The notes beneath the pieces were generated by a model. It did not search any database, was not told the origin of the DNA, and saw only the letters and a list, made by a program, of their open reading frames with translations. Shown in pieces: positions 16,307-63,549 of a DNA stretch of 64,000 bases. The translations under genes were made by a program, and so were the position numbers. Within the stretch, counting starts at the first letter, position 1; each line of letters begins with the position of its first letter. Source of the stretch: a virus; the IMG/VR virus record IMGVR_UViG_3300020578_000006, positions 124,001-188,000 of that record; one strand, given 5' to 3'.

Positions 16307-16312
16307 TTAATA

Positions 16313-16320
16313 TATTTAGA
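16313..16320 (-). promoter_or_regulatory. Probable late box of gene 17
   Basis: TCTAAATA (one mismatch to TATAAATA) 6 nt before the ATG at 16306, back to back with the plus-strand box at 16323-16330. Confidence 0.5.
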
Positions 16321-16322
16321 GG

Positions 16323-16330
16323 TATAAATA
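16323..16330 (+). promoter_or_regulatory. Late promoter box
   Basis: TATAAATA, 5 nt before the ATG at 16336; divergent from the gene 17 box 2 nt away. Confidence 0.75.
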
Positions 16331-16335
16331 GATAT

Positions 16336-30241: not shown

Positions 30242-30927
30242 GTAAAAAACGGACTGTTAAAATCAAAATTTGCCACTGAAGTTAATCCTTCTGTTGTGAG
30301 TTCATAGATCACACCCTCTTCTAAAGGTTCGCTGTTTTTAAATCTAACACTACTAAACTCATTTTCGAGCATATTTGCAAAAACTGTACTACCACATCTT
30401 GCTAAATTAACTTTCCTTTCATTGGTGTTTGCTATCCATAATCCGAAAGTACCTTCTAGTTGTGATAATGTTGAAACGATAACTTGAAGGGGATCAAACT
30501 CTCCTTCACCCGAGGCCTCTATAGTGTGTAGCATATATGGTATAATGCTCGAGTCTACTGGGTTCGGCCATTTAGGATTATATTCTTTTTTAATACTATC
30601 AAAGTTGGAAAGAACACCATTATGTGCCACTACCCAGTTTTCATATACAAATGGATGTGATGTTTCACGGGAGAATTTACGCTTGCTAGATGTAGGAGCT
30701 TGAGTGTGTCCGAGATAAAAATACGGCTGTATCTTTTGTTTTTTAATACTCTCATCCAACTCTTTGCTAGCGTCTTTCAAAGAAATGGATCCATTCCACC
30801 TATGAACAACTAAATCACTTGTTGTTGTAAAAATAACTAATGAAGTGGAAAAGCTACCCCTTTTTCTATTCAAATCATATAAATCGAGAAACGATTCTTT
30901 TTTTACAGCTCCAAATATACCGCACAT
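30238..30927 (-). CDS. Class II glutamine amidotransferase, probable partner of QueC
   Basis: The product is 229 aa. N-terminal nucleophile MCGIFGA (Cys2), the LGHTQAPTSS strand and VVAHNGVLSNF give the Ntn glutaminase signature. There is no synthase domain, so it must donate ammonia to a partner. It starts one base after the queC stop. In some archaea and in phage 9g, a Gat-QueC fusion makes archaeosine from preQ0; here the two halves seem to be separate, adjacent genes. Role by context is inference. Confidence 0.78.
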   Translation of the reverse strand: MCGIFGAVKKESFLDLYDLNRKRGSFSTSLVIFTTTSDLVVHRWNGSISLKDASKELDESIKKQKIQPYFYLGHTQAPTSSKRKFSRETSHPFVYENWVVAHNGVLSNFDSIKKEYNPKWPNPVDSSIIPYMLHTIEASGEGEFDPLQVIVSTLSQLEGTFGLWIANTNERKVNLARCGSTVFANMLENEFSSVRFKNSEPLEEGVIYELTTEGLTSVANFDFNSPFFT

Positions 30928-31671
30928 TTAATTATTATAGGTATCGTAGCTTATTATTCTACAGTTATATTTTTCCCAAACAGGCTTTAAGTCTTGTCTA
31001 TAGGGTAAGGGGTCAATATAACCTGCATTAGCAAAACCTTTAATTCTTAATGCACTACTCGGTGAATTTGCATCACATAAATTTTCACCAGAATAACAAG
31101 TATATGTTTTGCTAAATTTTACTTTTAGTCTTACGCCCTCCTTTACTATTTCAGCCTTATCCATTTCTATCAACGGTGCCTCTATTTTTATTCTTGTTTC
31201 TCGGTTCAACGCCAACACACCATTAATAGTAGGCAAAAATTCAGGACTTGCATCCCAATACCCGGCCAAACTATCTACTTTAGTTGCACCGTGATATACA
31301 ATACAAGCGCCTACAGCTTCTGCATAGGATGCAGCAATACTTAAAAATATCATATTACGATTAGGTACGTATGATTTTGGCTGAGCTTCTCCCGCTATCT
31401 GTCTTATATCAGGGGTCTCTATGTCATTGTTTGTAAGACTACTTGTGGGTGCAAGTTTCTTAATAAAAGACGTATCAATAGTCTGCCACTCTTTTATCTT
31501 AAGCTTTTCAACATGGTATTCAGCTAATTTTAATTCTCTTTTATGTCTTTGACCATAATCATATGAAAGTCCAAAAACGTTTTCTGATCCAAATTGCTCA
31601 ACAGCTTTGTACAGTATTACTGTACTGTCCATTCCTCCAGATATAGGAACTACAACCTTATTCTTTTTCAC
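30928..31671 (-). CDS. queC: 7-cyano-7-deazaguanine (preQ0) synthase QueC
   Basis: The product is 247 aa. PP-loop SGGMDST (11-17), YDYGQRHKREL, VPNRNMIFLSIA and YWDASPEFL are QueC blocks. QueC turns CDG and ammonia into preQ0. Only Cys192 and Cys199 of the usual four-Cys zinc cluster are present; the others are Asn/Ser (CDANSPSSALR). The GTG start overlaps the end of uvsX; GAGG lies about 11 nt upstream. Directly followed by a class II amidotransferase. Confidence 0.9.
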   Translation of the reverse strand: MKKNKVVVPISGGMDSTVILYKAVEQFGSENVFGLSYDYGQRHKRELKLAEYHVEKLKIKEWQTIDTSFIKKLAPTSSLTNNDIETPDIRQIAGEAQPKSYVPNRNMIFLSIAASYAEAVGACIVYHGATKVDSLAGYWDASPEFLPTINGVLALNRETRIKIEAPLIEMDKAEIVKEGVRLKVKFSKTYTCYSGENLCDANSPSSALRIKGFANAGYIDPLPYRQDLKPVWEKYNCRIISYDTYNN

Positions 31672-44562: not shown

Positions 44563-45447
44563 ATGAATAGGGACATTAAGTTATTGTTTGAGGCTTATAA
44601 TAGTATTAAAGAGGCAGAAGATACTAACATAGACACCTTTCATAAAGAATTGGCCAAACAATGGGCTAGTTTATTCTTAGATAAATTACATGAGTATCCT
44701 ATTACCAGTAGATCGGCACACTTAGAAAGATTGCTTGATGGTTCATTAGAAGTTTTTAAGAAGTATATTCTAGATGATATTAAATCTAAAAAACTATCTT
44801 ATTTAAAGGCAGACGCTTTTTCAAAAAGCGAAGATGCTCAAAGCATTGTAAAAAAATTCACAGTAGTAAGTGGAGGTGTAGATAACACCAGTGATGTAGG
44901 TTTTGATTTGAGTGAAGTGGACCACGAGCAAGCCCAGAGCTTGCAAGATGTAGTAGACAGAACAATTGAAGACATGGAGAATGATGAAGATTTTGCAGAT
45001 ACTTTTCCTCAAGAATACAGAGAATTTAAGAACAATATGTTTATTATGTCCACCGATAGTGGTGATTTTGTGGCTGTACTTCCAGGGCATTTAGACGAGA
45101 AGCAAGTATTTGCAAAATTGGCATCAGCTTTCAGTGAAGATAAAAAAGGCCTATCAGATCAAGAATATCACCAAGCCCGTAAATTTGGGCTTGAAAGCGC
45201 AGGAGAAGTGGTCGGTAAAGGCCCTATAAAGATTCAGCTGACTAAAGACCAGACTTTATTATGCACAAGAGATGGACGGGAGCAAGAAGTAAAGTTCGTT
45301 AAAGGTGTTATATTTAATTGTGATGAATGGGTAGGGGATTATTATCATTGTGAATCAAAGAAATATGGTGGTGTTGCCGTATTTCCTCCAGACATTAAGC
45401 TATTAAGCGCCCCAGAGGGCACAATTACTCATCTAACTCCAGAGTAA
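44563..45447 (+). CDS. Putative capsid-targeted internal protein
   Basis: The product is 294 aa. MNRDIKLLFE-A matches the leader type of the 292-aa protein at 29363 (SKLIFE-A). The mature part is acidic, with a helical domain (about 20-95), an acidic linker and an alpha/beta end (FIMSTDSGDFVAVLPGHLD, YYHCESKKYGGVAVFPPDI). No family recognised. It immediately precedes the nuclease-NTase-ligase operon. Confidence 0.7.
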   Translation: MNRDIKLLFEAYNSIKEAEDTNIDTFHKELAKQWASLFLDKLHEYPITSRSAHLERLLDGSLEVFKKYILDDIKSKKLSYLKADAFSKSEDAQSIVKKFTVVSGGVDNTSDVGFDLSEVDHEQAQSLQDVVDRTIEDMENDEDFADTFPQEYREFKNNMFIMSTDSGDFVAVLPGHLDEKQVFAKLASAFSEDKKGLSDQEYHQARKFGLESAGEVVGKGPIKIQLTKDQTLLCTRDGREQEVKFVKGVIFNCDEWVGDYYHCESKKYGGVAVFPPDIKLLSAPEGTITHLTPE

Positions 45448-45495: not shown

Positions 45496-46665
45496 GTGGC
45501 TTACATATCCCTAAAAGACCTATATTTTGAAGACGTAGCCGGCATAACTGTGCCTCCGCTGCCTAGACAACAGGTAAATACACCCCCGGTCAAAGTTTTT
45601 GTGCCGGGTGATGAATATGTACCTCAAACACCGTGGACAGAATACGATATATCTCCAGATTTATTTCAAAAAACAGCAGGTGGGGATAAGGAAGGTACTG
45701 GTAGAGGAGAATACAGTATAGCATGTATATTGTATGGGTTCAAGACTAAGGAACAAGTGGATAAAGCATCTGGTAGAATTATACAAGGCGGGGGAGCTTC
45801 TTTTGACGTGGTAGGACCAGATAAACGCAAGTATGAGGTAAAAGAATTAACTAAAGCTGTACGTACAGGAACGGAAGGAACCGGGGTTTTTACAGATATC
45901 CTTAATTCGACAATAGAATTGTTAGATGCTATACTAAAGGAATTTAATACGCTAGACGCCCAGGGTAAGCAGACCATAAACAATATGATTCTAAATAGCA
46001 ATACAGTAAAAAGCACTATTCTTAACAGAAAAAGTCAAAAGGGACATTTTGACGCTATTAAAGACAGGTGGAGCTTAGATGAATATTTAAATGACATAAA
46101 GCGTAAAGCCCCAAGAGAGCTCTCTAAAGGTATTCTTATTTCTCCTATTTTAAATTTAGGTCAATATAAAGAAGAGCGCCCTTACGTAATTTTTTCCTTA
46201 AAACAATTAGTTGATGTATTAAACGAGATTGCCTCTACACAAGTCGCAACAGGCAATGAAGAAGGTACACCTAATCCAGCTGTAAGGGATATCGCCGATA
46301 CTATCAATAAACATTACAGCGTACAAGGTGATGAGAAAGAAAAAGAATTTTTCAAAAAAGAGGCAGAGAAAATTGATAGGGCATTAATTCAAAAGAGATG
46401 TAAGGAATTTAAAAAATGTACTGATGAATTATCTTTTAGAAAGCAAATAATAGCACTTAATTTGTCAGGAATGCTTAAGCTAATTCAAGATAAAACTCAA
46501 GATATTGTTGAGAATTTATTTCCAAATGATGGGTTATTTGCAGTAAACAGCCAAGGCTTTCAATACATTCCGCATAGTAAGTTAAATACCTATCTTGCTT
46601 TTGATACAATAAGTTCAGGAAGTGTAAAGATCAAGCAAAAAATAGCTAGTAATGAAACCATTTAA
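45496..46665 (+). CDS. Putative capsid-targeted PD-(D/E)XK nuclease-like protein
   Basis: The product is 389 aa with a GTG start fixed by the late box. The start VAYISLKDLYFE-D is leader-like. RGEYSIACIL (Glu72), GASFDVVG (Asp104) and KYEVKEL (Glu114, Lys116) follow the E...D...ExK order of PD-(D/E)XK nucleases. The rest is helical and Lys-rich. A late, possibly co-injected nuclease. The catalytic reading is from motif spacing only. The next gene starts inside its last codons. Confidence 0.6.
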   Translation: MAYISLKDLYFEDVAGITVPPLPRQQVNTPPVKVFVPGDEYVPQTPWTEYDISPDLFQKTAGGDKEGTGRGEYSIACILYGFKTKEQVDKASGRIIQGGGASFDVVGPDKRKYEVKELTKAVRTGTEGTGVFTDILNSTIELLDAILKEFNTLDAQGKQTINNMILNSNTVKSTILNRKSQKGHFDAIKDRWSLDEYLNDIKRKAPRELSKGILISPILNLGQYKEERPYVIFSLKQLVDVLNEIASTQVATGNEEGTPNPAVRDIADTINKHYSVQGDEKEKEFFKKEAEKIDRALIQKRCKEFKKCTDELSFRKQIIALNLSGMLKLIQDKTQDIVENLFPNDGLFAVNSQGFQYIPHSKLNTYLAFDTISSGSVKIKQKIASNETI

Positions 46666-47278
46666 ACAATTTCTTACAGAACAAAATGGTAGTAGTATAG
46701 GTTTTTTTCCTGGAGCATTTAAACCGCCTCACAAAGGCCATTTTGATACTGCAAAACAAGCTGCAACAATTAATGATGCAGCAGTAATTTTAGTTTCAAA
46801 AATAGATAGAGATAACATATCAGCCGACGACTCAATGTTTGTCTGGGAGACTTATAAACAGTATCTACCAAAAAACTTGTATGTGTTTTCAGTTCAAGGG
46901 TCCCCTGTTTTAACTATATATCAAATTACAGACATCCTTAACAATGGTGTTTTTACCCCCACACCTAGAGCCCCTACCCCTCTACCTGCGGCAACAGAAA
47001 TAGCAGATTTGTTAAGAAAGTTTAACCCACCTTACAGTGTTAACCTTTATGCAAGTCAAGAAGATACAGAAAGATTTAAATCATTCTATGGACCAAGTAA
47101 AGAGATTTTCCAAGGAAAAAACGTACAAAGTATTGCTATGAAAGATATTTCTCGACTAGCGTCTGCGACAGATGCACGTGCAGCATTGTTAAAAAATAAT
47201 GCAAAGGGGTTTCATTCTTTATTACCAAATATTGCAGATCAAAGTAAAGAGGCTATCTTTAATCGATTAAAAAAATGA
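46652..47278 (+). CDS. Capsid-targeted-like HxGH nucleotidyltransferase
   Basis: The product is 208 aa. MKPFKQFLTE-Q is nearly the T4 internal-protein leader. FFPGAFKPPHKGH (HxGH at 27-30) is the cytidylyltransferase/NMN adenylyltransferase signature, and ISRLASATDARAAL resembles the C-terminal ISsT..R motif. It transfers a nucleotidyl group; the substrate (NMN, pantetheine phosphate, sugar phosphate or other) cannot be read. Overlaps both neighbours. Confidence 0.78.
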   Translation: MKPFKQFLTEQNGSSIGFFPGAFKPPHKGHFDTAKQAATINDAAVILVSKIDRDNISADDSMFVWETYKQYLPKNLYVFSVQGSPVLTIYQITDILNNGVFTPTPRAPTPLPAATEIADLLRKFNPPYSVNLYASQEDTERFKSFYGPSKEIFQGKNVQSIAMKDISRLASATDARAALLKNNAKGFHSLLPNIADQSKEAIFNRLKK

Positions 47279-48636
47279 AATCTTTTAAACAATTCTTGCT
47301 CAAAGAGCAAATTATAAAAGAAGAGCGTACTTCTTATTTTTCACCACATCTCTCACATTTAGAAGACTTAGCTGTAGAGAACGGTAAAGCAGGATTTAAA
47401 GATTTTCTGACACATGTAAATTTAATTTCTAAAAAGATTCAAGGCTACGAATCAGAGCAAGAAATTAATGCAAAAATAGATGGAAGCCCTGCTATTTTGT
47501 TTGGTATTGATCCAAAAACTAAGACTTTTTTTATATCATTAAAATATGTAGTGGATGAATCTACCGATACAATAAAAGAAAATGCAAAACTCTTTCATAC
47601 ATCAGAAGAGATAGATCAAGCTATGTCGGATAGACCAGATTTTGCATCTAGGCTTAAAAATTTATTAGAGCAGTTAACACCAGCTTATGATAATTCTGGG
47701 TTAATATATCAAGGTGATGTTTTATACGCTAGTCAAGAAGATAAAAAAAGAGTGAAAATAGGTACAGAAGAGTTTATTACTTTTGAACCAAACACTATAA
47801 TGTATGCTATTCCTATGGATGATAAATCAGAACTATTTCATAAAGTATTAAACTCTTCAGTGGGGGTAGTTGTTCATGATAGTTTTAAAGGGGTAGTAGA
47901 TAAAGAATCGGGGATAATAAAACTTGTACCGGCGTCTAAAAACATTGACAGTTTGATTGCTAGTAGTACAAATTCAAAAGCATTCATAAAAGGTAGCAAT
48001 TATCGTACTTTTGCTTTTGATATACCCGATAAATTTTTTGATAATCTTAATACACTTATAGTGGACGCTAGTAAGCATATAAACTCTATTTCTGATGAAT
48101 TTAATAATGAATATGTGTCGCCTGGTAGGGGGGCGCCTTCTAGCCAAATCCTAGATATGTTAAAGCGCTATTTAAATAAGCAACTTGACCTAGAGGACTC
48201 AGGACTGTTTGGGGCAGCAAAGACTAGCGGTAGATTAAACTTTAATGCATTTTACAAGGGGTTTCAACAATATGTTGAGTCGCAGATAACAAAAGGTATA
48301 GAAGGACTTGGACCTAAGGGTCAAGCCCAACGCCAGCAAAGACTTAGTATTGTTCAAAGCTTTTTACAGAACAACGCAGCTAATTTTGAGCATCTATTAA
48401 CAGCTACCTTTGAGATGGTAAAAATTAAGTACCTTATTTTTAATATACTGTCTCAACTAGATACTAAGCTAACACAGCATGCTTTTTACAGACTTCCCGA
48501 TGGCTCGTATGTTAAAACAAAAGATGAAGGCTATGTTTTGTTTGCTGGTAATAATCAAGTAAAGATTGTAGATAGAGTAGATTTTTCTAAGATGAACCGC
48601 TTAGTTGGCGGTAGGCGCAGAACCCTTATTACCTGA
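47275..48636 (+). CDS. Capsid-targeted-like KxDG nucleotidyltransferase (ligase fold)
   Basis: The product is 453 aa. Leader MKSFKQFLLKE-Q. The ligase superfamily motifs appear in order: KIDGSPA (motif I, Lys67), LIYQGDVLYA (III-like), DEGYVLF (IV, Glu418) and VKIVDR (V, Lys430). This matches a family I recall as DUF6267 in T4-like marine phages. It could be a polynucleotide ligase or another covalent nucleotidyl enzyme. Start ATGA-overlaps the NTase gene; its end overlaps a convergent gene by 36 bp. Confidence 0.72.
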   Translation: MKSFKQFLLKEQIIKEERTSYFSPHLSHLEDLAVENGKAGFKDFLTHVNLISKKIQGYESEQEINAKIDGSPAILFGIDPKTKTFFISLKYVVDESTDTIKENAKLFHTSEEIDQAMSDRPDFASRLKNLLEQLTPAYDNSGLIYQGDVLYASQEDKKRVKIGTEEFITFEPNTIMYAIPMDDKSELFHKVLNSSVGVVVHDSFKGVVDKESGIIKLVPASKNIDSLIASSTNSKAFIKGSNYRTFAFDIPDKFFDNLNTLIVDASKHINSISDEFNNEYVSPGRGAPSSQILDMLKRYLNKQLDLEDSGLFGAAKTSGRLNFNAFYKGFQQYVESQITKGIEGLGPKGQAQRQQRLSIVQSFLQNNAANFEHLLTATFEMVKIKYLIFNILSQLDTKLTQHAFYRLPDGSYVKTKDEGYVLFAGNNQVKIVDRVDFSKMNRLVGGRRRTLIT

Positions 48637-49215
48637 TTCGTTAATAGCATTTAATGCTTCAAGATTAAAAATTGTTTGGCGTAATACAGATTCTAGAACT
48701 TCTTTACCCTCACCGTACAGCATATCTCTTATTTTAGATACTATTTTTAATTCATGTGAATTTTCATCTGCATCAAACTCACCGTCTTTTCTAAATTTGT
48801 TATATTCAAGATAGTTTTTAACACTCTCAATATAGCTTGCAGCTAATGTAATTTTACTGAATACCCAAGGTTCTAAATCTTGATTGTCTTTTAGTAGATT
48901 GTAAAGAGCTTTTGACCCGTTATGAATTTTATATAGTTCGTTCTTTGCCATATCAGCTTCAGATTCACCAGAACCGGTAGAGGGTTCAACAGGGGTAATT
49001 TTTGAAGAATCTTCACAATTTTCACTATTTTTACACTGTAAACAATCTTCACCATCTTCACACCCACAAGATTTTTTATTAAGCTTTATTACTGTTGATG
49101 TGTTATTGGAAGGTACCATATTCGTGGTTTCGGCCGCGGGGCCCAGGTTTAATTCATTAACTACAATCTGGGTATAAGCTTCGGAAATTTTTTCTAATTC
49201 ACCTTTTCTGCTCAT
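48601..49215 (-). CDS. Putative capsid-targeted protein with Cys cluster
   Basis: The product is 204 aa. The start SRKGELEKISE-A offers an ISE site, and VVNELN a second. A Cys cluster (CGCEDGEDCLQC, then ENC) at about 50-67 probably binds zinc or another metal. The C-terminal half is helical (WVFSKITLAASYIESVKNY). A similar Cys pattern occurs after the amber stop at 52244. Own late box 6 nt before the ATG. Confidence 0.68.
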   Translation of the reverse strand: MSRKGELEKISEAYTQIVVNELNLGPAAETTNMVPSNNTSTVIKLNKKSCGCEDGEDCLQCKNSENCEDSSKITPVEPSTGSGESEADMAKNELYKIHNGSKALYNLLKDNQDLEPWVFSKITLAASYIESVKNYLEYNKFRKDGEFDADENSHELKIVSKIRDMLYGEGKEVLESVLRQTIFNLEALNAINESGNKGSAPTAN

Positions 49216-49221
49216 TTTATA

Positions 49222-49229
49222 TATTTATT
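49222..49229 (-). promoter_or_regulatory. Late promoter box
   Basis: AATAAATA on the minus strand, 6 nt before the ATG at 49215; 2 nt from the opposing box. Confidence 0.65.
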
Positions 49230-49231
49230 CA

Positions 49232-49239
49232 AATAAATA
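49232..49239 (+). promoter_or_regulatory. Late promoter box
   Basis: AATAAATA, 8 nt before the ATG at 49248. Confidence 0.6.
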
Positions 49240-49247
49240 CATAATAT

Positions 49248-49664
49248 ATGCGTAGTTACAAAGAATTTTTCTATGAACAAATACTAGGGGCTACGGAAGG
49301 TATTACTATTCAACATGTTGGAAACGTTAGAGCCACTGTAGACACTGGTAACAGCGGTTATAATGTACTTCATGCAGAAATAATTGATGGTGCAAAAGAG
49401 GGACATGTAAAATTTAAAACAGTAAACGACAAAGTGTTAGAATTGCCTGTAAAAGAGTTTATAACGGTATCCGGAAATAATAATACCAACGATAGACCAG
49501 TAGTAGAGTTAGACTGTAGCTTGGGCCAAGAACAATTTAATAAAGTTCCTTTCAGCCTTGCGGACAGAAGTCAGCAAGATACCCCTGTTCTCTTAAGTAA
49601 AGATTTTATAAAATTAAATGGCGGTGTTGTTAATGTTAATATTAACAGCGAAATTAAAAAATAA
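49248..49664 (+). CDS. Capsid-targeted-like retropepsin-fold aspartic protease
   Basis: The product is 138 aa. MRSYKEFFYE-Q is a leader of the T4 internal-protein type. VRATVDTGNSGYNVLHA carries a DTG catalytic triad (32-34), HVKFKTVND and RPVVELDCSLG follow, and FSLADRSQQDTPVLLSKDF matches the family of RimK-associated retropepsin-like proteases, where fsL.DRs...yPvLlGr is diagnostic. Possible roles: virion maturation, or cutting a host protein after injection. Confidence 0.72.
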   Translation: MRSYKEFFYEQILGATEGITIQHVGNVRATVDTGNSGYNVLHAEIIDGAKEGHVKFKTVNDKVLELPVKEFITVSGNNNTNDRPVVELDCSLGQEQFNKVPFSLADRSQQDTPVLLSKDFIKLNGGVVNVNINSEIKK

Positions 49665-49991: not shown

Positions 49992-50648
49992 TTAGATTAA
50001 TTTTCGGTTTTGTGCGAACTCAATAAACTTGTAAAATTCGTTTCTAGAATTATCTTTATCATCTAGAAAAGCACCAGACATTCTTGCGGTACGCATAGTT
50101 GAATCATGTCTAATGCCACGGTTAGAGCAGCATGTGTGAGCGGCCTCAATCATAACAGCTACTCCTTTATTCTTAATACAAACTTCATCAATATACTTGT
50201 GAATTTGCATTGTAAGGTTTTCTTGTACTTGAGGGCGACGAGAAAACCAATCCACAATACGATTTAATTTACTCAATCCAATCACCTTACCGTCCTTTGC
50301 AGGAATATAAGCAACGTGGGCAAACCCCATAAAAGGTGCGTGGTGGTGTGAGCAGAGCGATGTAACTTTAATATTGGTTTGAGATACAATACCATCATAC
50401 TTATCTACATTATCAAACGCGGTAATCTTAGGCGGCTCACTATAACATCCCCAGGCAAAGTCTTCTACAAATGCCTTAGCAACCCTAAAGGGGGTGTTGG
50501 CACTATTTGGATCGTTTCTCCAATCATAACCCAAAGCGTCCATGTATGCTTCATACGCGGCCGCGGCCTTTAGTATAATTTGATTTCTCTCTTCCTCGGA
50601 ATGTGGATGGTTATGATTGGCAAAAGCTAGCTTTTTCTTATTAAACAT
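49992..50648 (-). CDS. folE: GTP cyclohydrolase I FolE
   Basis: The product is 218 aa. VTSLCSHHHAPFMGFAHVAY and AHTCCSNRG supply the zinc ligands (Cys, His, Cys), and GLSKLNRIVDWFSRRPQVQE is the conserved active-site block. It converts GTP to dihydroneopterin triphosphate, the first step towards preQ0 (and folate). With QueD, QueE and QueC it completes a route from GTP to preQ0. ATG 6 nt after TATAAT. Confidence 0.95.
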   Translation of the reverse strand: MFNKKKLAFANHNHPHSEEERNQIILKAAAAYEAYMDALGYDWRNDPNSANTPFRVAKAFVEDFAWGCYSEPPKITAFDNVDKYDGIVSQTNIKVTSLCSHHHAPFMGFAHVAYIPAKDGKVIGLSKLNRIVDWFSRRPQVQENLTMQIHKYIDEVCIKNKGVAVMIEAAHTCCSNRGIRHDSTMRTARMSGAFLDDKDNSRNEFYKFIEFAQNRKLI

Positions 50649-52340: not shown

Positions 52341-52994
52341 ATGTCATTTCAATTTGAAAGTACAAAAATTATTGATTTAGGTAGTTGTGCGTTTAGACAA
52401 TGGAGAGCTGATAGTCATTGTAAGTTTATTCATGGCTACAGGCTGCAAGCTAAATTCTGGTTTGGTTGTAACAATTTAGACGAAAAGAATTGGGTTGTAG
52501 ATTTTGGAGGTTTAAAGCAATTAAAATTAACTTTAGAGAAACAGTTTGATCACACATTATGCATTGCTGGTGATGATCCTTTATTAGAAGATTTTAAAAA
52601 CCTACATAACAAAGGTGCTGTTGATTTAAGAATTATGCCAACAGGTGTAGGTATAGAGCGTACAGCACAATGGTGTTTTATAAATGCTGACATTATTATA
52701 AGATCCCAGACAAATAATAGATGTTGGGTTGAAAGAGTAGAGGTATGGGAGCATGATAAAAATTCTGCTATTGTAACGCGAGACTATGTTACAGTACCAC
52801 AACATGATCCTTATGTTTCAGAGAAACATAATGCAGAACAATTTGAACTACCTTTTCAACCACAGGCTACCACGGTTGCTGCTCCTGCTCCAGAGATACA
52901 AAACGCAGTTACAAGGAGTAATGCAGCTGCGGTCGGTAATGAAATGTCTACCGGTTGGGGCAATCCATTTGGTGGTACTAGCTGGGGTTCTTAA
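52341..52994 (+). CDS. queD: 6-carboxytetrahydropterin synthase QueD-like
   Basis: The product is 217 aa. FRQWRADSHCKFIHGY corresponds to the Cys and HGH active-site region of the QueD/PTPS family, but the HGH His is Tyr. VVDFGGLKQLKLTLEKQFDH and PTGVGIERTAQWCF are the conserved second half. Converts dihydroneopterin triphosphate to 6-carboxytetrahydropterin. A 50-residue Pro/Ala/Gly tail is phage-specific. Early promoter; end overlaps phoH, convergent. Confidence 0.85.
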   Translation: MSFQFESTKIIDLGSCAFRQWRADSHCKFIHGYRLQAKFWFGCNNLDEKNWVVDFGGLKQLKLTLEKQFDHTLCIAGDDPLLEDFKNLHNKGAVDLRIMPTGVGIERTAQWCFINADIIIRSQTNNRCWVERVEVWEHDKNSAIVTRDYVTVPQHDPYVSEKHNAEQFELPFQPQATTVAAPAPEIQNAVTRSNAAAVGNEMSTGWGNPFGGTSWGS

Positions 52995-53774: not shown

Positions 53775-54521
53775 ATGTCTTTAGATACAACAATATTTTT
53801 AAGTGATGATAAGGTTTTTTATACAATAGAAGGGGAAGGCGAATATGTAGGTCACCCATCGGTGTTTATGAGATTATCGATGTGTAATTTAACGTGTAAA
53901 GGGTTTGCTTCTGCTGATTCACCTCACGGGTGCGATAGCTTTATAAGTTGGTCAGTAAAAAATCATTTTAAAATTAAAGACATTTTAGATTTACTGGATA
54001 ATGAGGGGTATACAAAGCATTTACGTGAAGGGGCCATCTGGAAGATTACAGGGGGTGAGCCTCTAATTCAACAGAAAAACCTATTAGAACTGGTTAGAGA
54101 GTTTGCTAAGCGTAATGGGTTTATACCAAAAATAGATTTTGAGACTAATGCAACTATTCAACCTTTAGATGACTGGACAGCATACCGGGTAACATATACA
54201 ACCTCTCCAAAGCTATCTAATAACGGTGACCCAGAAGAAAAGCGCTATAAACCTGCCGTACTTAAATGGCACGTTAGTGCCGGTTCCGGATTCAAATTTG
54301 TAATTAACGAGCAAAAAGACTTAGACGAAGTATATGAGAAGTATATCAACCACCCAGATATATTGTTGCCAAGACATAGAGTATGGTTAATGCCGTGTTG
54401 TGGTAGTAGGCAAGAGCATACAGAAAAAGCTTCTATGGTAGCAGAATTATGTAAAACACATGATATGAAATTTAGTCCAAGGTTGCAGCTAGTAATTTGG
54501 GATAAAGCATTAAAAGTATAG
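53775..54521 (+). CDS. queE: 7-carboxy-7-deazaguanine synthase QueE (radical SAM)
   Basis: The product is 248 aa. YTIEGEGEYVGHPSVFMRLS leads into the Fe-S cysteines CNLTC...HGC, WKITGGEPL is the SAM-binding GGEP motif, and IDFETNAT the next core strand. The cysteine spacing is CX3CX11C, unlike the usual CX3CX2C, as in divergent QueE forms. Makes the deazaguanine ring from carboxytetrahydropterin. Strong early promoter. Confidence 0.9.
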   Translation: MSLDTTIFLSDDKVFYTIEGEGEYVGHPSVFMRLSMCNLTCKGFASADSPHGCDSFISWSVKNHFKIKDILDLLDNEGYTKHLREGAIWKITGGEPLIQQKNLLELVREFAKRNGFIPKIDFETNATIQPLDDWTAYRVTYTTSPKLSNNGDPEEKRYKPAVLKWHVSAGSGFKFVINEQKDLDEVYEKYINHPDILLPRHRVWLMPCCGSRQEHTEKASMVAELCKTHDMKFSPRLQLVIWDKALKV

Positions 54522-57475: not shown

Positions 57476-58285
57476 ATGACGGGTGTAGGAATTGTAACAT
57501 GTAATCGACCGAAATTTTTTCTTAAATGCTTTAGAACTATTCCCAAAGATGTTGAGCTTGTTGTAGTTAATGACGGTTCGAAATTTGAAGATTGGGAGAG
57601 ACTATTAAACGAAAGACCTTTTAAATTTATACAAAACGAACAAAATCTAGGCGTAGGCAAATCAAAAAATAAGCTGCTTAAAGCGTTGCTTGAAAAGGGT
57701 TGCACAGATCTTTTTTTAATTGAGGATGATATTATAGTTAAAGATCCAGAGGTATTCAATGAATATATTAGAGCCAAAGACATAACAGGTATACAGCACT
57801 TTAATTTTGGATATCATGGCCCGGCTAATAAGGGAAATATATCCGGTGGTGCACCAACACCTCGATATATTATAGATTACGGTGATATAAAGATAGCATT
57901 TAATGCACACAGTGTTGGTGCTTTTTGTTATTATTCGAAAGCATGTTTAGATAAAGCAGGCTTAATAGATGAAGACTATACAAATGCTTTTGAACATGTT
58001 GATCATGATTATAGAATTTTTAAAGTTGGTATGGGGGCACCCTACTGGCATTTTCCGGATATAGCAAATAGTATGGATTATTTAGATGAAATAGAATGTT
58101 CAGAAAAAAGTAGTGCAATAAGACCGAGAACAGATTGGCGGTCAAATATAGAGCACGGGGTAAAGCTTTTCAAAGAGAAGCATGGTTATTTACCCGCTTG
58201 GCAAGGTGCAGTTCCAGATATGGATGAAAAGAAAGTTAGAAGAATTTTAAAAGACCTGCAACGCTTTTACGCAAAGAGAGATTAA
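57476..58285 (+). CDS. Family 2-like glycosyltransferase
   Basis: The product is 269 aa. GVGIVTCNRPKFFLKCF, LVVVNDGSKFEDW, QNLGVGKSKNKLLKALL and LFLIEDDIIVKDP (EDD metal site) form the GT-A core; NAFEHVDHDYRIFK is the acceptor-side acidic motif. Cytoplasmic sugar transferase, target unknown. First gene of the island, directly abutting the next. Confidence 0.82.
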   Translation: MTGVGIVTCNRPKFFLKCFRTIPKDVELVVVNDGSKFEDWERLLNERPFKFIQNEQNLGVGKSKNKLLKALLEKGCTDLFLIEDDIIVKDPEVFNEYIRAKDITGIQHFNFGYHGPANKGNISGGAPTPRYIIDYGDIKIAFNAHSVGAFCYYSKACLDKAGLIDEDYTNAFEHVDHDYRIFKVGMGAPYWHFPDIANSMDYLDEIECSEKSSAIRPRTDWRSNIEHGVKLFKEKHGYLPAWQGAVPDMDEKKVRRILKDLQRFYAKRD

Positions 58286-59170
58286 ATGCCAGCTAATAAA
58301 AAGATTGCTTTCGGGGTAAATTTGTTCGGTAAATCAGTTCGAACTGATTTATGTATAGAATCACTTCTTGTAGTAAAAAGCAAATATCCAGATATTATAG
58401 ACTTATACAATATTCAATTTGAAGACAAAGCTATCAAAGGTAGAGAGCATCCGGGTATAAAAACCCTATTTGTATTAAAAGAATCTAATAAAGACTATGT
58501 AAAAGAATCAACACGGACTATACCTATGTTGAGAGAAGTTTTTGATAAATTAGCTGATTTAAATTATGAATATTTTGCATTTACTAATGATGATATTATA
58601 ATTTCGGACAGACTAATAAAAGTTTTCTTAGAGACAGACTACGATTCATGGCCAGCGAGTAGGCTGGCCATTGAGCCTATTTTTACTTTATCTGAACCAA
58701 TTTCAGGCGATCATTATCAGGTTGCAGGTTTTGATACATTTATTTTTAAGACTTCTTGGTGGAAAAAGAAACGATTAGAGTTTCCGAATTATATCCTAGG
58801 CCATCCTTGTTGGGATGTACATTACGCTACATTATGCTTAAGGCATGGAAAATCTAAATTCTGTAACGACTGGCCACCACCCACCTTTCATATAAAACAC
58901 GGCGGGGGAGATCAATACTCCACACTGGAAGTAGATTATAATAATAGTTTATACTGGGTACCCTGTAGATTTGATGTTGATATGTGGCATCACTACCTCT
59001 TTAATGTCTTACTAGTGAGACCAGGTATAAATTATTGGACGCCGCATAAAAATGAAGCTGAATTAGAGAAGGTCTGTTTCAATGATACTTGGTTTAAAAC
59101 GAATTATTGGTCTTATTCGGGTGCGCAAGCAGCTGCACAAGCACAACTTTTAAAAAGTTTCTACCAATAA
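58286..59170 (+). CDS. GT-A-like glycosyltransferase
   Basis: The product is 294 aa. YEYFAFTNDDIIISDRLIK has the NDD metal site after a strand; VAGFDTFIFKTSWWKKKRL and LGHPCWDVHYATLCLRHGK resemble acceptor-side motifs of capsule or LPS-type transferases. Specificity unknown. The start follows the previous stop with no gap; the end overlaps the convergent GT-D-like gene by 10 bp. Confidence 0.65.
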   Translation: MPANKKIAFGVNLFGKSVRTDLCIESLLVVKSKYPDIIDLYNIQFEDKAIKGREHPGIKTLFVLKESNKDYVKESTRTIPMLREVFDKLADLNYEYFAFTNDDIIISDRLIKVFLETDYDSWPASRLAIEPIFTLSEPISGDHYQVAGFDTFIFKTSWWKKKRLEFPNYILGHPCWDVHYATLCLRHGKSKFCNDWPPPTFHIKHGGGDQYSTLEVDYNNSLYWVPCRFDVDMWHHYLFNVLLVRPGINYWTPHKNEAELEKVCFNDTWFKTNYWSYSGAQAAAQAQLLKSFYQ

Positions 59171-60027
59171 GTTCCACCCTCAATCTTCATATAACCCTCC
59201 GGCGTCTCTTCAGCAGAAGGCCTTACCCAGGCATTATTATAAAAATGATTAAAAATTCTCATTTGTTCCCATCTTTTACCTTTTATACCAAATAACATTT
59301 GAAGTGCCCCGCCTAAATGTACTGCTTGTTTATTCATATTTTTGGCAAAAGCTGCTAGCGGTAATGATGATGCGCCTGTACCTATCAATGCTACATCGTA
59401 ATCAGCTTGAAACATTTGATATTTGATATCATCGATCATTTCTTTCCATGTTAGATATTTGTTCTTATCACCAGTAATAGCCTTACTTGTCGGGTGAAAA
59501 ATTGTTTTTAAATCAAATTGCGGGAGTACTTCCGGATTTCGCCAGATACTCAATCTATTTGAATATTGTTTTTTTATCGTTTCGGTAAAAGGGCTTATAA
59601 CCAAAACTCGCTTATCCTTTAGAAGACTAGTCCAAGGCAATCCATGATAAAAAGATTCTAATGATTGAAGATCAACCAATACACTGGAAGGATTTCTGCT
59701 TTTTATAAATCTTAGTTCAAAATCCCCTAATCCATTATTCCAAGGTGAAATAATATCTGTAGCTGTTACCGCGTCGGATAGTTGTTCACAAAAATATATT
59801 CTAGCCTCTTCTGTCTGAGGAAAGACCCCAGCATTAACAAAAATTTCATTTACAACTGTCGGGTTCCAGGAAATTGGGCTTTGATTGTGATGTTTGGCAA
59901 AAAAATAATTGTACGCACACATTAATTCGGCATTACCTATCTTACCTATACACAACGGTTTACCAGTTTTTAAAGCCTCATATATTTCCACACCGCCTTC
60001 CAAAAAGTTTAACACTTTAAAATCCAT
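59161..60027 (-). CDS. GT-D-fold glycosyltransferase-like protein
   Basis: The product is 288 aa. CIGKIGNAELMCAYNYF corresponds to the RfGDGEl opening of GT-D (DUF1792-type) enzymes, and DVALIGTGASSLPLAAFAK, then VHLGGALQMLFGIKGKRWE, to the conserved C-terminal G.ga....a......a.h.GG..q.lfG region. The only minus-strand member of the island; no clear promoter. Confidence 0.7.
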   Translation of the reverse strand: MDFKVLNFLEGGVEIYEALKTGKPLCIGKIGNAELMCAYNYFFAKHHNQSPISWNPTVVNEIFVNAGVFPQTEEARIYFCEQLSDAVTATDIISPWNNGLGDFELRFIKSRNPSSVLVDLQSLESFYHGLPWTSLLKDKRVLVISPFTETIKKQYSNRLSIWRNPEVLPQFDLKTIFHPTSKAITGDKNKYLTWKEMIDDIKYQMFQADYDVALIGTGASSLPLAAFAKNMNKQAVHLGGALQMLFGIKGKRWEQMRIFNHFYNNAWVRPSAEETPEGYMKIEGGTYW

Positions 60028-60050
60028 ACTTTATTTTAATGTATATATCA

Positions 60051-60078
60051 TTGAAATCCATTGATTATGATATAAAAT
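60051..60078 (+). promoter_or_regulatory. Sigma70-like promoter
   Basis: TTGAAA (60051-60056), 16-nt spacer, TAAAAT (60073-60078), 6 nt to the GTG at 60085. Confidence 0.62.
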
Positions 60079-60084
60079 TAATAA

Positions 60085-60816
60085 GTGAAGACTGTACTGG
60101 TAAGCTTTGCAAACGAGCGTTTTTTTCGCAGTCAAGGCATGTTAGTTGAATCTGGTAAAAAGTATTTTTCCGGACATGCCTCTTATACAATAGACTTGCT
60201 CAATAATGAATTTAAGGACAAAAATAAGCATATCTTACAGCAACCTAGAGGGTGTGGTTATTGGCTATGGAAACCATATATTATACTCAATACATTAAAC
60301 CTTCTCAAAGACGGTGATTTGGTGTTTTATGTAGATAGTGGTAATTTAATAATAAATGATCCAAAGCCTGTAATAGATCTTTGTTTAAAAGAAGAAACCG
60401 GTATTTTATTATTTGAGAATAGAGATGGTGCACCCCCAGGGACAATATGGAAAAATTACATGTGGACAAAATATGATTGTTTTGAACGTATGGGCTGTAC
60501 AGGTGAAAAATATACAGAGGGCAATCAAATAGATGGTTCATACATCATAGTGCAGAAGAATAAGTTTTCTGTTAAGTTTTTTAACGAATATTTAAAATGG
60601 TGTGAAACTGATGAAATTATTACCGATTTGCCAAGCAAAAAGCCAAACCACAAAGATTACAAAGACCACAGGCACGATCAATCCATTCTTTCGCTTTTGG
60701 CTATTAAGTATAATATTACTTTAGCAAGAGAACCATCTGAGTGGGGTAATTCTTATATAACTGAAAAATATGATTACCCTCAATTATTTCAACATCATAG
60801 AGGTTTAATATGTTAG
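60085..60816 (+). CDS. Capsule-synthesis-like glycosyltransferase
   Basis: The product is 243 aa with a GTG start 6 nt after the promoter. QPRGCGYWLWKPYIILNTL and DGDLVFYVDSGNLI (DSG metal site) are typical of a GT32/capsular polysaccharide-type family; HDQSILSLLAIKYNI is its C-terminal motif. Specificity unknown. Heads a five-gene run with short overlaps. Confidence 0.78.
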   Translation: MKTVLVSFANERFFRSQGMLVESGKKYFSGHASYTIDLLNNEFKDKNKHILQQPRGCGYWLWKPYIILNTLNLLKDGDLVFYVDSGNLIINDPKPVIDLCLKEETGILLFENRDGAPPGTIWKNYMWTKYDCFERMGCTGEKYTEGNQIDGSYIIVQKNKFSVKFFNEYLKWCETDEIITDLPSKKPNHKDYKDHRHDQSILSLLAIKYNITLAREPSEWGNSYITEKYDYPQLFQHHRGLIC

Positions 60817-61499
60817 AAGAAAAATTTTATGTAAGGTCACATATGGGTCTAGGTGACATGATATTATGTAACGCTATCGTACGTAATATATGTAAAAAAT
60901 ATAAAAACGTTGTCACTTTCGTAAAGCCTGAATATGAAAAAAGTATTAAGTTTATGTATAGGGACATACCTAACCTAGAATTGATTGTGATTAATGAGTG
61001 TGATATTGATAAACTTTTAGATACAGTAGATGTAAAAAATAAAATATGGCTTGGTTTTGGTAATATAGAGCATCTATTAGAAAAATATAGGTTTGATGAA
61101 TGTTTTTATAGGCAGGTTGGCTTAAAATACGAGCGCAGATGGACAGATTTTTATGTAGAGAGAGATAAAATATCAGAAGAAAATCTTTTTAGTAAAAGCG
61201 GCCTAGTGAAAGGAGAATATATTTTTATTCATGATGACAAGGAGAGGGGGCTCTTGATACCTGACAAGATGCTACCTCAAGGGATTACACATTACAGGCC
61301 AGATAGAGCGGTTGAAAATATATTTGATTACTGTACTATAATTGAAAATGCCAAGCAAATCCATGTTATGGATAGTTGTTTTAAGCATATTGCAGATTCT
61401 CTTGACTTAACTAATGAGTTGTACTATCATGTTTATTTACGAAGTAATCGTAATCACAACGTTACCAATAGTAGATTGAGCTGGAATTATATTATATGA
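60810..61499 (+). CDS. GT-B/heptosyltransferase-like protein
   Basis: The product is 229 aa. The start RSHMGLGDMILCNAIVRNI is the glycine-rich loop of GT9-type enzymes (h.GlGD.i...ai), and YIFIHDDKERG plus the IENAKQIHVMDSCFKHIAD region corresponds to the second Rossmann domain (i..A......S...H.A). Shorter than bacterial heptosyltransferases (about 320 aa). Overlaps both neighbours. Confidence 0.7.
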   Translation: MLEEKFYVRSHMGLGDMILCNAIVRNICKKYKNVVTFVKPEYEKSIKFMYRDIPNLELIVINECDIDKLLDTVDVKNKIWLGFGNIEHLLEKYRFDECFYRQVGLKYERRWTDFYVERDKISEENLFSKSGLVKGEYIFIHDDKERGLLIPDKMLPQGITHYRPDRAVENIFDYCTIIENAKQIHVMDSCFKHIADSLDLTNELYYHVYLRSNRNHNVTNSRLSWNYII

Positions 61500-62323
61500 A
61501 AATTACAGCTGGTATGATTGTTTTTAATGCAGAAAAATTTGCTCCAGTTGGTATGCTTCAGGCTCAGTTGGAACAGTTATATTTTCTTGCAGATCAAATA
61601 GTTATCGTAGAAGGTGCAACAAAATCAGATAATAAAACCCATTATTTTGATGGTGATGCAACCTGGTGTACTGAGGATGGTAAGTCTAATGATAGTACTG
61701 TTAGTATTATCAAGAATTTTCCAGATCCTCAAAATAAGATTATTTTAGTAGAAGCAAAAGGATTCTGGAATGGTAAAACACAAATGTGTAATGAGTGGAG
61801 CAAAGTAGCCAATGGTGATTACATCTGGCAAATCGATGTAGATGAATTTTATCACAAAAAAGATATATTGAAAATAAAAAATATATTGCAAAAGTATGAG
61901 CCTAATGCAGTACATTTTTTTGCAAATCATTTTTGGGGAGATTATTTTAATTGTATAGATGAATCCTGCCCCTACACATGGGGAAACAATTTACCTTGGA
62001 GACGTATTTTTAGACACAAACCAGGAAGCAAGTGGCAGAGCCACGAACCACCTGTATATTTGTTACCAGATGGAACAGATTGCAATACCTTGCAATTGAT
62101 ACCAAGAGAGGAAACACTAAAGGTTGGATTGAAAATGTTTCACTATTCTTATGTAACACCAGAGCAAATTAGTTTTAAAGCCCGTTTCTATAAGCAATCT
62201 TGGACGGAGCAAACATATAAAGATTGGTTAGTAGATAAAGCTACACCTGTTAATGGTTCTTCTACAAAACCTTTTACAGGTCAGCACCCTGAGTGGCTTA
62301 CCAAAATTATACCTATAAAATAA
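61496..62323 (+). CDS. Family 2-like glycosyltransferase
   Basis: The product is 275 aa. ITAGMIVFNAEKFAPVGML, QIVIVEGATKSDNK and DYIWQIDVDEFYHKKDI (DVDE metal site) form the GT-A core; PWRRIFRHKPGSKWQSHEP is an acceptor-side segment. Specificity unknown. ATGA overlap with the upstream gene. Confidence 0.8.
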   Translation: MKITAGMIVFNAEKFAPVGMLQAQLEQLYFLADQIVIVEGATKSDNKTHYFDGDATWCTEDGKSNDSTVSIIKNFPDPQNKIILVEAKGFWNGKTQMCNEWSKVANGDYIWQIDVDEFYHKKDILKIKNILQKYEPNAVHFFANHFWGDYFNCIDESCPYTWGNNLPWRRIFRHKPGSKWQSHEPPVYLLPDGTDCNTLQLIPREETLKVGLKMFHYSYVTPEQISFKARFYKQSWTEQTYKDWLVDKATPVNGSSTKPFTGQHPEWLTKIIPIK

Positions 62324-62326
62324 TTT

Positions 62327-62935
62327 ATGACCGATTTAACAACTTTTGTAATGCATCATTCTCCTTTAGGTTATAGAAAAGAAGCTCTTCTAAATGATCT
62401 AAAAGCTGTTTCTTTTCCATACAAAACTGTATGGGTAGAAAGCTTTCCACCATCTCTTTTTCAAGGTACTAATAAAATTACGGCTGGGGAAATGTCTCTT
62501 TCGTTTAAACATTATCATTCATTTTGTACCCAATTAGAAAATAATATAGATGTCGCGCTTTATATTGAAGATGATGTTGCGTTACTAAGTGTGCCTAACG
62601 CTATAGAATTTATAGAGACATGTATTAAGGAAATGAAAGAAACTGATGGAGATATTTGTTGGGTAGGTGGTGTGCATTACCTAGGCATTAGAGAGCCTGA
62701 GATAAGCGGTAAACACCTATATTATAGAGAGGATTATACTACAAGATGTACTCATGCGTTTCTAGTAAATAAAAAATGTATCCCAACTATACTTTCAAAT
62801 TATCATTTTCAAAACCAGGTTGATATAATGTTAAATACAATAATATCTACACAAAAACTAAAAAATAGTTGGACTAGTCCGTTTTTTGATCAAAAAAGTC
62901 ATTATGATTCGAATTGGAAATGCTCAGTTAAATGA
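62327..62935 (+). CDS. GT25-like glycosyltransferase
   Basis: The product is 202 aa. ITAGEMSLSFKHYHSF and VALYIEDDVALLS (EDD) match the LPS biosynthesis GT25 pattern (T.gEigc..SH...w ... .liLEDD), and TRCTHAFLVNKKCI the following block. Short for the family. Coupled by ATGA to the last member of the island. Confidence 0.72.
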   Translation: MTDLTTFVMHHSPLGYRKEALLNDLKAVSFPYKTVWVESFPPSLFQGTNKITAGEMSLSFKHYHSFCTQLENNIDVALYIEDDVALLSVPNAIEFIETCIKEMKETDGDICWVGGVHYLGIREPEISGKHLYYREDYTTRCTHAFLVNKKCIPTILSNYHFQNQVDIMLNTIISTQKLKNSWTSPFFDQKSHYDSNWKCSVK

Positions 62936-63549
62936 CCCCATCCTTTCGAGCTGTCTCTTATACATACGGTAATATTCCTTCAGAAGTTGTTGAATATCAA
63001 AAAAAAGTTTTTGATTTTCTAAATTTGCCTATCGATCAATATATAGGTGGGTACGATCATGGTCAGTTTTTAGAAAAAATCTTAACAGAGGCGAAAACAG
63101 ATTATACTATATTTTTTGACATAGACTGTATTCCATTAGTACCTAATTTTGATTCTATTATACAAGAGGAATTATTAAAAGAAGAATGTTTAATTGGTAT
63201 TGAGCAGACGGGCCATCCGAGATATCATATATATGCCGGGCCAGGGTGTATGGGATTATCTTCTAATTTGTATAAAAAATTAGAATCCCCTCAGTTAAAT
63301 CAAAACTTTAGAAGTGATGTTGCTGAAGAGTTGACTTGGCGATGTGAAGAGAGGGCAATTAAAGTAAAGTTTTTTAAGGTGTCAAGTATTGAGCAACCTA
63401 AATGGCGATTAGGTTATGATAGAGAGTTTGGAATAGGGACTACTTACAAATATAGTAATATAGACGTATTATATCATCAGTTTGAAATTAGATACAATTA
63501 CGGCAATTTTATAGAAAAATGTAAGTCAATACTAGGGACAAGTACTTAA
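62932..63549 (+). CDS. GT-A-like glycosyltransferase
   Basis: The product is 205 aa. YTIFFDIDCIPLVP provides a DID metal site, with GPGCMGLSSNLYKKLE and VAEELTWRCEERAIKVKFF downstream; a family of small phage and bacterial transferases has this layout. Specificity unknown. Last gene of the plus-strand island; the tail-fibre-like gene converges on it. Confidence 0.65.
   Translation: MTPSFRAVSYTYGNIPSEVVEYQKKVFDFLNLPIDQYIGGYDHGQFLEKILTEAKTDYTIFFDIDCIPLVPNFDSIIQEELLKEECLIGIEQTGHPRYHIYAGPGCMGLSSNLYKKLESPQLNQNFRSDVAEELTWRCEERAIKVKFFKVSSIEQPKWRLGYDREFGIGTTYKYSNIDVLYHQFEIRYNYGNFIEKCKSILGTST

What the first reader, a model, noticed from the sequence alone, without database searches (positions are those of the whole stretch)
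49248..49664. Capsid-targeted-like retropepsin (DTG) protease
Seen: leader MRSYKEFFYE, then DTGNSG at 32-37 and SLADRSQQDTPVLL. Known: RimK-associated retropepsin-like proteins share the DRS..(Y)PvLlG motif. Inference: an aspartic protease inside the capsid, acting in maturation or on host proteins after injection; aspartic proteases are rare in phages.
Basis: partly seen in the sequence, partly recalled or inferred. Interest (0 to 1): 0.66.

Follow-up and report, generated by a model that had tools for sequence, protein, structure and literature searches.

The report
Head-targeted phage polyglutamate-type protease
A large T4-like phage carries a small protease of the same fold as HIV protease, related to bacterial enzymes that trim strings of glutamate off proteins, with a front tag like the one T4 uses to load proteins into its head, so it is probably packed in the virus particle and delivered into the next host cell.

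Summary
The 138-aa ORF at 49248-49664 (+) is a PF05618 protein (33.1 bits, cut-off 27). Its predicted fold is a retropepsin: RloA, RloA2 and Lpg0085 Z 14-15, HIV protease Z about 9. The leader MRSYKEFFYE resembles the capsid-targeting sequence of T4 IPI-III. That motif starts 5 of 334 predicted proteins of this phage against 0.005 expected, and also fronts two unrelated neighbouring enzymes. The record encodes a T4-type S77 prohead protease. The catalytic Asp and the two arginines inferred to match RloA's key polyglutamate contacts (R114, R137) are invariant in 63 distinct phage domains. At least 363 viral stretches carry the domain: alone, fused behind a RimK-like ATP-grasp (reverse of bacterial RimBK), or behind a nucleotidyltransferase plus RimK. 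All 13 standalone and 23 of 25 two-domain proteins bear such leaders. YerA41's two-domain homologue is annotated as a structural protein after virion proteomics. The window phage and eight standalone records show no RimK, and no glutamate run exceeds four in its predicted proteome. Most likely it is a packaged, injected polyglutamate peptidase acting on a host polyglutamylated protein. Packaging, activity and target are inferred, not shown.

The parts
49248..49664 (+). Gene for the 138-aa retropepsin-like protein, PF05618 (RimB/RloA superfamily)
49248..49277 (+). Leader MRSYKEFFYE, T4-type capsid-targeting sequence; predicted prohead-protease cut after E10, just where the folded domain begins (residues 1-9 pLDDT below 50; structural matches start at residue 9)
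   Evidence: the cut site is inferred
49341..49349 (+). Catalytic D32-T33-G34; Asp and Gly invariant in 63 distinct phage domains, Thr in 62 (Ser in one)
49494..49496 (+). R83, equivalent of RloA R114 (polyglutamate contact), invariant 63/63
   Evidence: mapping inferred from the alignment and from the 23-residue spacing in 9g58/9g59
49566..49568 (+). R107, equivalent of RloA R137 (polyglutamate contact), invariant 63/63
   Evidence: mapping inferred as for R83
49231..49239 (+). AAATAAATA, T4 late-promoter-like element 8 bases before the start codon; a divergent TATTTAT at 49222-49228 lies before the gene at 48601-49215 on the - strand
   Evidence: sequence resemblance only
46652..47278 (+). 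Conserved neighbour: HxGH cytidylyltransferase-like protein with the same kind of leader (MKPFKQFLTE)
47275..48636 (+). Conserved neighbour: DUF6267 protein with invariant K-I-D-G (ligase-like) and the same kind of leader (MKSFKQFLLKE)

Best explanation
The gene encodes a homodimeric aspartic protease of the RimB/RloA type. It is made late, drawn into the prohead core by its N-terminal leader, freed of the leader by the T4-type prohead protease (cut after E10) and packaged in the head with other leader-bearing enzymes. On infection it enters the cell with the DNA and hydrolyses glutamate chains on a host protein that has been polyglutamylated after translation; ribosomal protein S6/RpsF, the only well-defined RimB substrate, is the first candidate. 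Confidence by step: retropepsin fold and RimB/RloA superfamily 0.97; head-targeted 0.85; polyglutamate specificity 0.7; acts in the new host rather than in the head 0.55. The first step is shown by computation; the others are inferred.
For: Family and fold: PF05618 above cut-off; profile matches to RloA2 9g59 (3.8e-10), 2pma (4.7e-9) and RloA 9g58 (6.5e-9) over nearly the whole domain; AlphaFold2 model pLDDT 76.5, pTM 0.71; Z 15.4/14.6/14.4 to 2pma/9g59/9g58 and about 9 to HIV protease. Head targeting: leader like T4 IPI MKTFKEF and IPII/III MKTYQEFIAEA; 5 of 334 starts against 0.005 expected; same leader on two unrelated adjacent enzymes in about 13 relatives; S77 prohead protease in this record and in all four standalone-type records of 92 kb or more; leaders in 13/13 standalone and 23/25 RimK-fused proteins against 55/473 internal blocks; YerA41_066, a RimK-retropepsin homologue, is annotated 'structural protein' by a group that found 63 particle-associated proteins by LC-MS/MS. 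T4 internal proteins with such leaders are injected (PMC12373910). Specificity: D32, R83 and R107 invariant in 63/63 distinct domains; in RloA R114A and R137A had the strongest effect. Host target: longest Glu run in the predicted proteome is 4, RimB needs about 5-6 and RloA 8 contiguous Glu, and no RimK was found.
Against: No virion proteomics for this phage and no activity test. K46 of RloA, a third polyglutamate contact, is K in 57 of 63 phage domains but T30 in the window's own subclade, so specificity may have shifted. Asn follows DTG instead of the Ala usual in retropepsins and RloA. The host is unknown, so whether it has RimK or polyglutamylated S6 is unknown. YerA41's own N-terminus does not look like the T4 leader, and its proteome table could not be opened.
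Confidence: 0.45

Rival explanations
1. It works inside the prohead: packaged with the core, it helps digest acidic scaffold or leader-bearing core proteins during head maturation, as a second maturation protease beside the S77 enzyme.
For: Leader and late-promoter-like element place it in head assembly; the record has one strongly Glu-rich protein, 10 Glu in a 20-residue stretch, record 140261-141280 = window 16261-17280.
Against: No predicted protein has more than four Glu in a row; RimB and RloA need longer uninterrupted runs, and Arg within or beside the run reduced or abolished RloA cutting. An S77 protease already does T4-type maturation.
Confidence: 0.25
2. The leader notwithstanding, it acts in the cytoplasm of the cell where it is made, late in infection, on ribosomes or other polyglutamylated host proteins; packaging is incidental or absent.
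For: RimB acts on ribosomal protein RpsF in the cytoplasm; some cyanophage RimK homologues lack any leader.
Against: The leader is kept in all 13 distinct standalone proteins and in two unrelated neighbours, which needs a reason; the YerA41 homologue is annotated as a virion protein.
Confidence: 0.15
3. It is a protease with a different substrate: the RimB fold has been re-used in this subclade, which shows no RimK and lacks the K46-equivalent lysine, to cut some non-polyglutamate sequence, for example a host defence protein.
For: T30 replaces K in the window's subclade; no RimK in the eight standalone-type records searched nor in this one; T4 internal proteins commonly counter host restriction.
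Against: Both arginines with the strongest effect in RloA are invariant.
Confidence: 0.12
4. It is a catalytically dead binding or structural domain.
For: None direct; small head proteins can be structural (general knowledge).
Against: The DTG motif was found in all 21 relatives recovered without seeding on it; active-site Arg invariant; purifying selection.
Confidence: 0.03

Closest known systems
RimB (Pseudomonas fluorescens retropepsin that removes polyglutamate from RpsF; PMC11957791)
   Same: Same Pfam family, DTG active site, single domain without a secretion signal; RimK link seen in most phage relatives
   Different: NCBIfam RimB equivalog score only 18 bits against a cut-off of 200; DTGN instead of DTGA; no RimK detected in this phage; T4-type leader
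RloA, RloA2, RloA3 (periplasmic retropepsins, PDB 9g58 and 9g59; PMC12239564) and Lpg0085 (2pma)
   Same: Closest solved structures (Z 14-15, 25-27% identity); the two key polyglutamate-binding arginines
   Different: RloA has a signal peptide and functions in the periplasm; this has a capsid-targeting-like leader; K46 equivalent is Thr
Bacterial RimBK hybrid (Desulfotalea psychrophila; PMC11957791)
   Same: The same two domains on one chain in most phage relatives
   Different: Bacterial order is RimB then RimK; phage order is RimK then retropepsin, behind a leader and sometimes a nucleotidyltransferase
T4 internal proteins IPI, IPII, IPIII and Alt
   Same: Short N-terminal leader, S77 prohead protease in the same genome, presumed injection
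   Different: IPI-III are nuclease inhibitors and Alt an ADP-ribosyltransferase; none is a protease
Retroviral proteases (HIV-1 PR, clan AA family A2)
   Same: Fold and DTG (Z about 9)
   Different: About 10% identity; much closer to the bacterial RimB/RloA family than to retroviral enzymes

Membership tests
Retropepsin-type aspartic protease (clan AA) | D-[TS]-G active-site motif in a single-domain protein | tested here: met
   DTG at residues 32-34; Asp and Gly invariant in 63/63 distinct phage domains, Thr in 62 with Ser in one; DTG present in 21/21 relatives found without seeding on DTG
Retropepsin-type aspartic protease (clan AA) | Retropepsin fold | tested here: met
   AF2 model, HIV protease Z about 9 over 94 residues, RloA Z 14-15 over 113-118
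Retropepsin-type aspartic protease (clan AA) | Homodimer sharing one active site; D32-dependent proteolysis | not testable with these tools
   No multimer prediction and no assay available
Retropepsin-type aspartic protease (clan AA) | Ala after DTG (typical of retroviral proteases and RloA, PMC12239564) | tested here: not met
   Asn; 62 of 63 phage domains have Asn. A typical, not strictly defining, feature
PF05618 (RimB/RloA superfamily) | Score above the curated cut-off | tested here: met
   33.1 bits against 27; 32.5 bits in the genome search
PF05618 (RimB/RloA superfamily) | Polyglutamate-contacting residues K46, R114, R137 of RloA | tested here: inconclusive
   R83 and R107 match and are invariant; K46 equivalent is T30 here though K in 57 of 63 relatives
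RimB equivalog (NCBIfam NF052261) | Score above the equivalog cut-off; rimK partner in the genome | tested here: not met
   18.1 bits against 200; no RimK match in the record, which may be incomplete
RloA (NCBIfam NF052262-NF052264) | Score above the equivalog/exception cut-offs; signal peptide | tested here: not met
   37.3 bits against 210 for RloA3, lower for RloA and RloA2; leader is MRSYKEFFYE, not a hydrophobic signal peptide (by eye)
T4-type capsid-targeted internal protein | About 10-residue N-terminal capsid-targeting sequence shared by otherwise unrelated proteins | tested here: met
   Match to T4 IPI-III; 5 of 334 starts against 0.005 expected; on three unrelated folds in relatives
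T4-type capsid-targeted internal protein | S77 prohead protease in the same genome | tested here: met
   5.5e-36 at record position 100462-100908; also in relatives
T4-type capsid-targeted internal protein | Protein present, leader-cleaved, in the virion and injected | not testable with these tools
   Only indirect: YerA41 homologue annotated 'structural protein'

The most novel reading that the evidence does not exclude
T4-like and related phages carry a packaged polyglutamate-editing system in the head: most as a RimK ligase fused in front of a retropepsin, the order opposite to the bacterial hybrid, and this lineage as the eraser alone, delivered at the moment of infection to reset glutamate tails on host ribosomal protein S6 or another polyglutamylated protein, in the way T4 Alt resets RNA polymerase.
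Probability: 0.35. Interest if true: 0.82.

Novelty: new variant of a known kind. Interest (0 to 1): 0.63.

Why it matters
RimB and RloA were characterised as polyglutamate-specific retropepsins in two 2025 papers on bacteria, and the search of open-access papers found none that describes them in phages. A head-targeted version in many phages, usually fused to the RimK ligase in a new order, points to ribosome or protein polyglutamylation as a target of injected phage proteins. It gives a defined residue-level test: D32, R83 and R107, a polyglutamate reporter, and S6 tails after infection. It would also mean that proteases of HIV-protease fold travel in phage heads.

Tried and rejected
Listeria-named phage hits: rejected as chance, E 0.4, lying over secA in an unverified wastewater contig. 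PDB 8prj and other 'Bagel' rows: rejected, a 20-residue repeat match with no significant domain. DTGNS conservation within the A1 scan: not used alone as evidence because that pattern seeded the scan; a scan seeded on the C-terminal half was run instead. Search for cellular DTGNS relatives in GTDB contigs: 22 pattern matches, none related; this only says that the pattern is not found there with a related domain, not that cellular ancestors are absent. RimK in this phage: not found by Pfam profile or by the phage RimK-retropepsin protein. Phage-encoded polyglutamate substrate: not found, longest run four. In-capsid maturation as the main role: kept only as a rival. A loose leader pattern fits only 2 of 8 of the large nucleotidyltransferase-RimK-retropepsin proteins, so packaging is less well supported for those. 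The ligase fold of the DUF6267 neighbour: top Foldseek rows are RNA ligases but E is 0.03-0.09, not significant.

Full report
What was checked. The stated ORF exists exactly at 49248-49664 on the + strand, 138 aa from ATG. The window is positions 124001-188000 of a 229,717-base IMG/VR virus record. The record has a T4-type S77 prohead protease (5.5e-36 at 100462-100908), so a T4-like head assembly pathway is present.

What the protein is. Pfam PF05618 matches at 33.1 bits, cut-off 27. NCBIfam RimB and RloA models match weakly, far under their equivalog cut-offs (18-37 bits against 200-280), so it is a distant member of that superfamily and is not filed as RimB or RloA. A profile of 24 phage domains finds the RloA2, Lpg0085 and RloA structures at 3.8e-10, 4.7e-9 and 6.5e-9. 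The AlphaFold2 model (pLDDT 76.5, pTM 0.71) aligns to 2pma, 9g59 and 9g58 with Z 15.4, 14.6 and 14.4 (rmsd 1.8-2.3 over 113-118 residues) and to HIV protease with Z about 9.

Active site and specificity. The Asp and Gly of DTG are invariant in 63 distinct phage domains, and Thr in all but one. Because DTGNS seeded one scan, an independent scan seeded on the C-terminal half was run: 25 relatives, and DTG in all 21 examined. In Pseudomonas aeruginosa RloA, K46, R92, R114 and R137 hold polyglutamate, and R114A and R137A had the strongest effects (PMC12239564). By the alignments to 9g58 and 9g59 and the 23-residue spacing of the two arginines, R114 and R137 correspond to R83 and R107 here (inference; the sequence of that RloA itself was not in hand). 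Both are invariant in 63/63 phage domains. K46 corresponds to a K in 57 of 63, but to T30 in the window's own subclade. RimB needs about five or six contiguous Glu (PMC11957791) and RloA eight.

The leader. MRSYKEFFYE resembles T4 IPI (MKTFKEF) and IPII/IPIII (MKTYQEFIAEA). A motif for this leader opens 5 of 334 predicted proteins of the record but occurs once in 67,060 internal windows. The two genes upstream, an HxGH cytidylyltransferase-like protein and a DUF6267 protein with an invariant KIDG, are unrelated to it and to each other, yet carry the same leader in about 13 relatives. The order HxGH, KIDG, reverse gene, retropepsin, with a GTP cyclohydrolase gene just beyond wherever the locus reaches it, is kept across the 17 relative loci compared, with the retropepsin at 58-100% identity. 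The model is disordered over residues 1-9 and the structural matches begin at residue 9, so the predicted cut after E10 would release the folded domain almost exactly. A T4-late-promoter-like AAATAAATA lies 8 bases before the start codon, and similar elements precede the relatives' genes. T4 proteins with such leaders are packaged and injected (PMC12373910; PMC9958956).

The wider family. Three architectures were read: the domain alone (about 134-138 aa); a RimK-like ATP-grasp followed by the domain (about 450-476 aa, including Pelagibacter phage Mosig and Yersinia phage YerA41); and a nucleotidyltransferase, RimK and the domain in one chain of about 960-1390 aa. They form three groups in a tree, with moderate support and no root. 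In the bacterial RimBK hybrid RimB stands in front of RimK (PMC11957791); in the phage proteins the order is the reverse. A loose leader pattern is present in 13/13 distinct standalone, 23/25 two-domain and 2/8 three-domain proteins, against 55 of 473 internal blocks. YerA41_066 is annotated as a structural protein by authors who report 63 particle-associated proteins by LC-MS/MS; the supporting table could not be opened. Two bacterial plasmid homologues that were read have DTGA and no such leader. S77 proteases were found in all four standalone-type records of 92 kb or more and in some fused-type records. RimK was found in 4/4 fused-type records tested and in none of the eight standalone-type records nor in this one; the records may be incomplete.

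Most likely mechanism. A late-made, head-packaged and injected polyglutamate peptidase. Because no predicted protein of the record has more than four Glu in a row, a phage-encoded polyglutamate substrate is unlikely, and a post-translationally polyglutamylated host protein such as S6/RpsF is the better candidate. Shown by computation: family, fold, active-site and arginine conservation, leader statistics, synteny, prohead protease. Inferred: packaging, leader cleavage, injection, activity, target. The main open points are the T30 substitution, the unknown host and the lack of virion data for this phage.

Place among known things. It works like RimB/RloA as far as sequence can tell, is a member of PF05618, fails the RimB and RloA equivalog tests, and meets the sequence tests of a T4-type internal head protein. 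No paper on a phage-encoded member was found in the open-access searches, although some phage entries in sequence databases are already named 'ATP-dependant zinc protease' or 'putative protease'.

Noticed in passing
window 47275-48636: DUF6267/phrog_455 protein with invariant K67-I-D69-G70 and a C-terminal KDEGYVLF...VKIVDR, like motifs of covalent nucleotidyltransferases (RNA/DNA ligases); carries a capsid-targeting-like leader. Foldseek's top rows are RNA ligases but not significant.
   Followed up: partly
window 46652-47278: HxGH cytidylyltransferase-like protein with a capsid-targeting-like leader; a nucleotidyltransferase of similar type is fused to RimK and the retropepsin in other phages.
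   Followed up: partly
record G000, e.g. window 29363-30241 and 44563-45447: A second leader type, MNxDSxLIFEAY, opens about nine otherwise different proteins of the record and probably marks another set of head proteins.
   Followed up: no
record G000; window e.g. 49222-49239: TAAATAA or TATAAATA lies within 40 bases upstream of 54 of 334 predicted starts, often only a few bases before the start codon, as if T4-type late promoters gave nearly leaderless mRNAs.
   Followed up: no
L038:4348-7581, L058:4366-7356 and similar: Proteins of about 960-1390 aa joining a nucleotidyltransferase, a RimK-like ligase, the retropepsin and DUF3140/DUF6321 regions in one chain.
   Followed up: partly
L021:2761-3420 (LR756504.1, 636-kb phage): A huge phage encodes a 219-aa protein ending in a DSGA-type retropepsin domain with both conserved arginines.
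   Followed up: partly
window 16261-17280: Strongly Glu- and Lys-rich predicted protein (10 Glu in 20 residues), next to the terminase gene; a possible scaffold or core protein.
   Followed up: no
window 30238-31671, 49992-50648, 52341-52994, 53775-54521: Genes that look by eye like a 7-deazaguanine pathway (QueC-like, GTP cyclohydrolase, QueD-like, QueE-like), suggesting modified DNA; only the GTP cyclohydrolase was tested.
   Followed up: no
L135:1477-2355, L136:1477-2355: Cyanophage RimK-only proteins (S-RIM8, S-RIM32) have no capsid-targeting-like leader, unlike the Melnitz and Mosig proteins.
   Followed up: partly
window 57476-63549: A run of glycosyltransferase-like genes follows the conserved block (by eye).
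   Followed up: no
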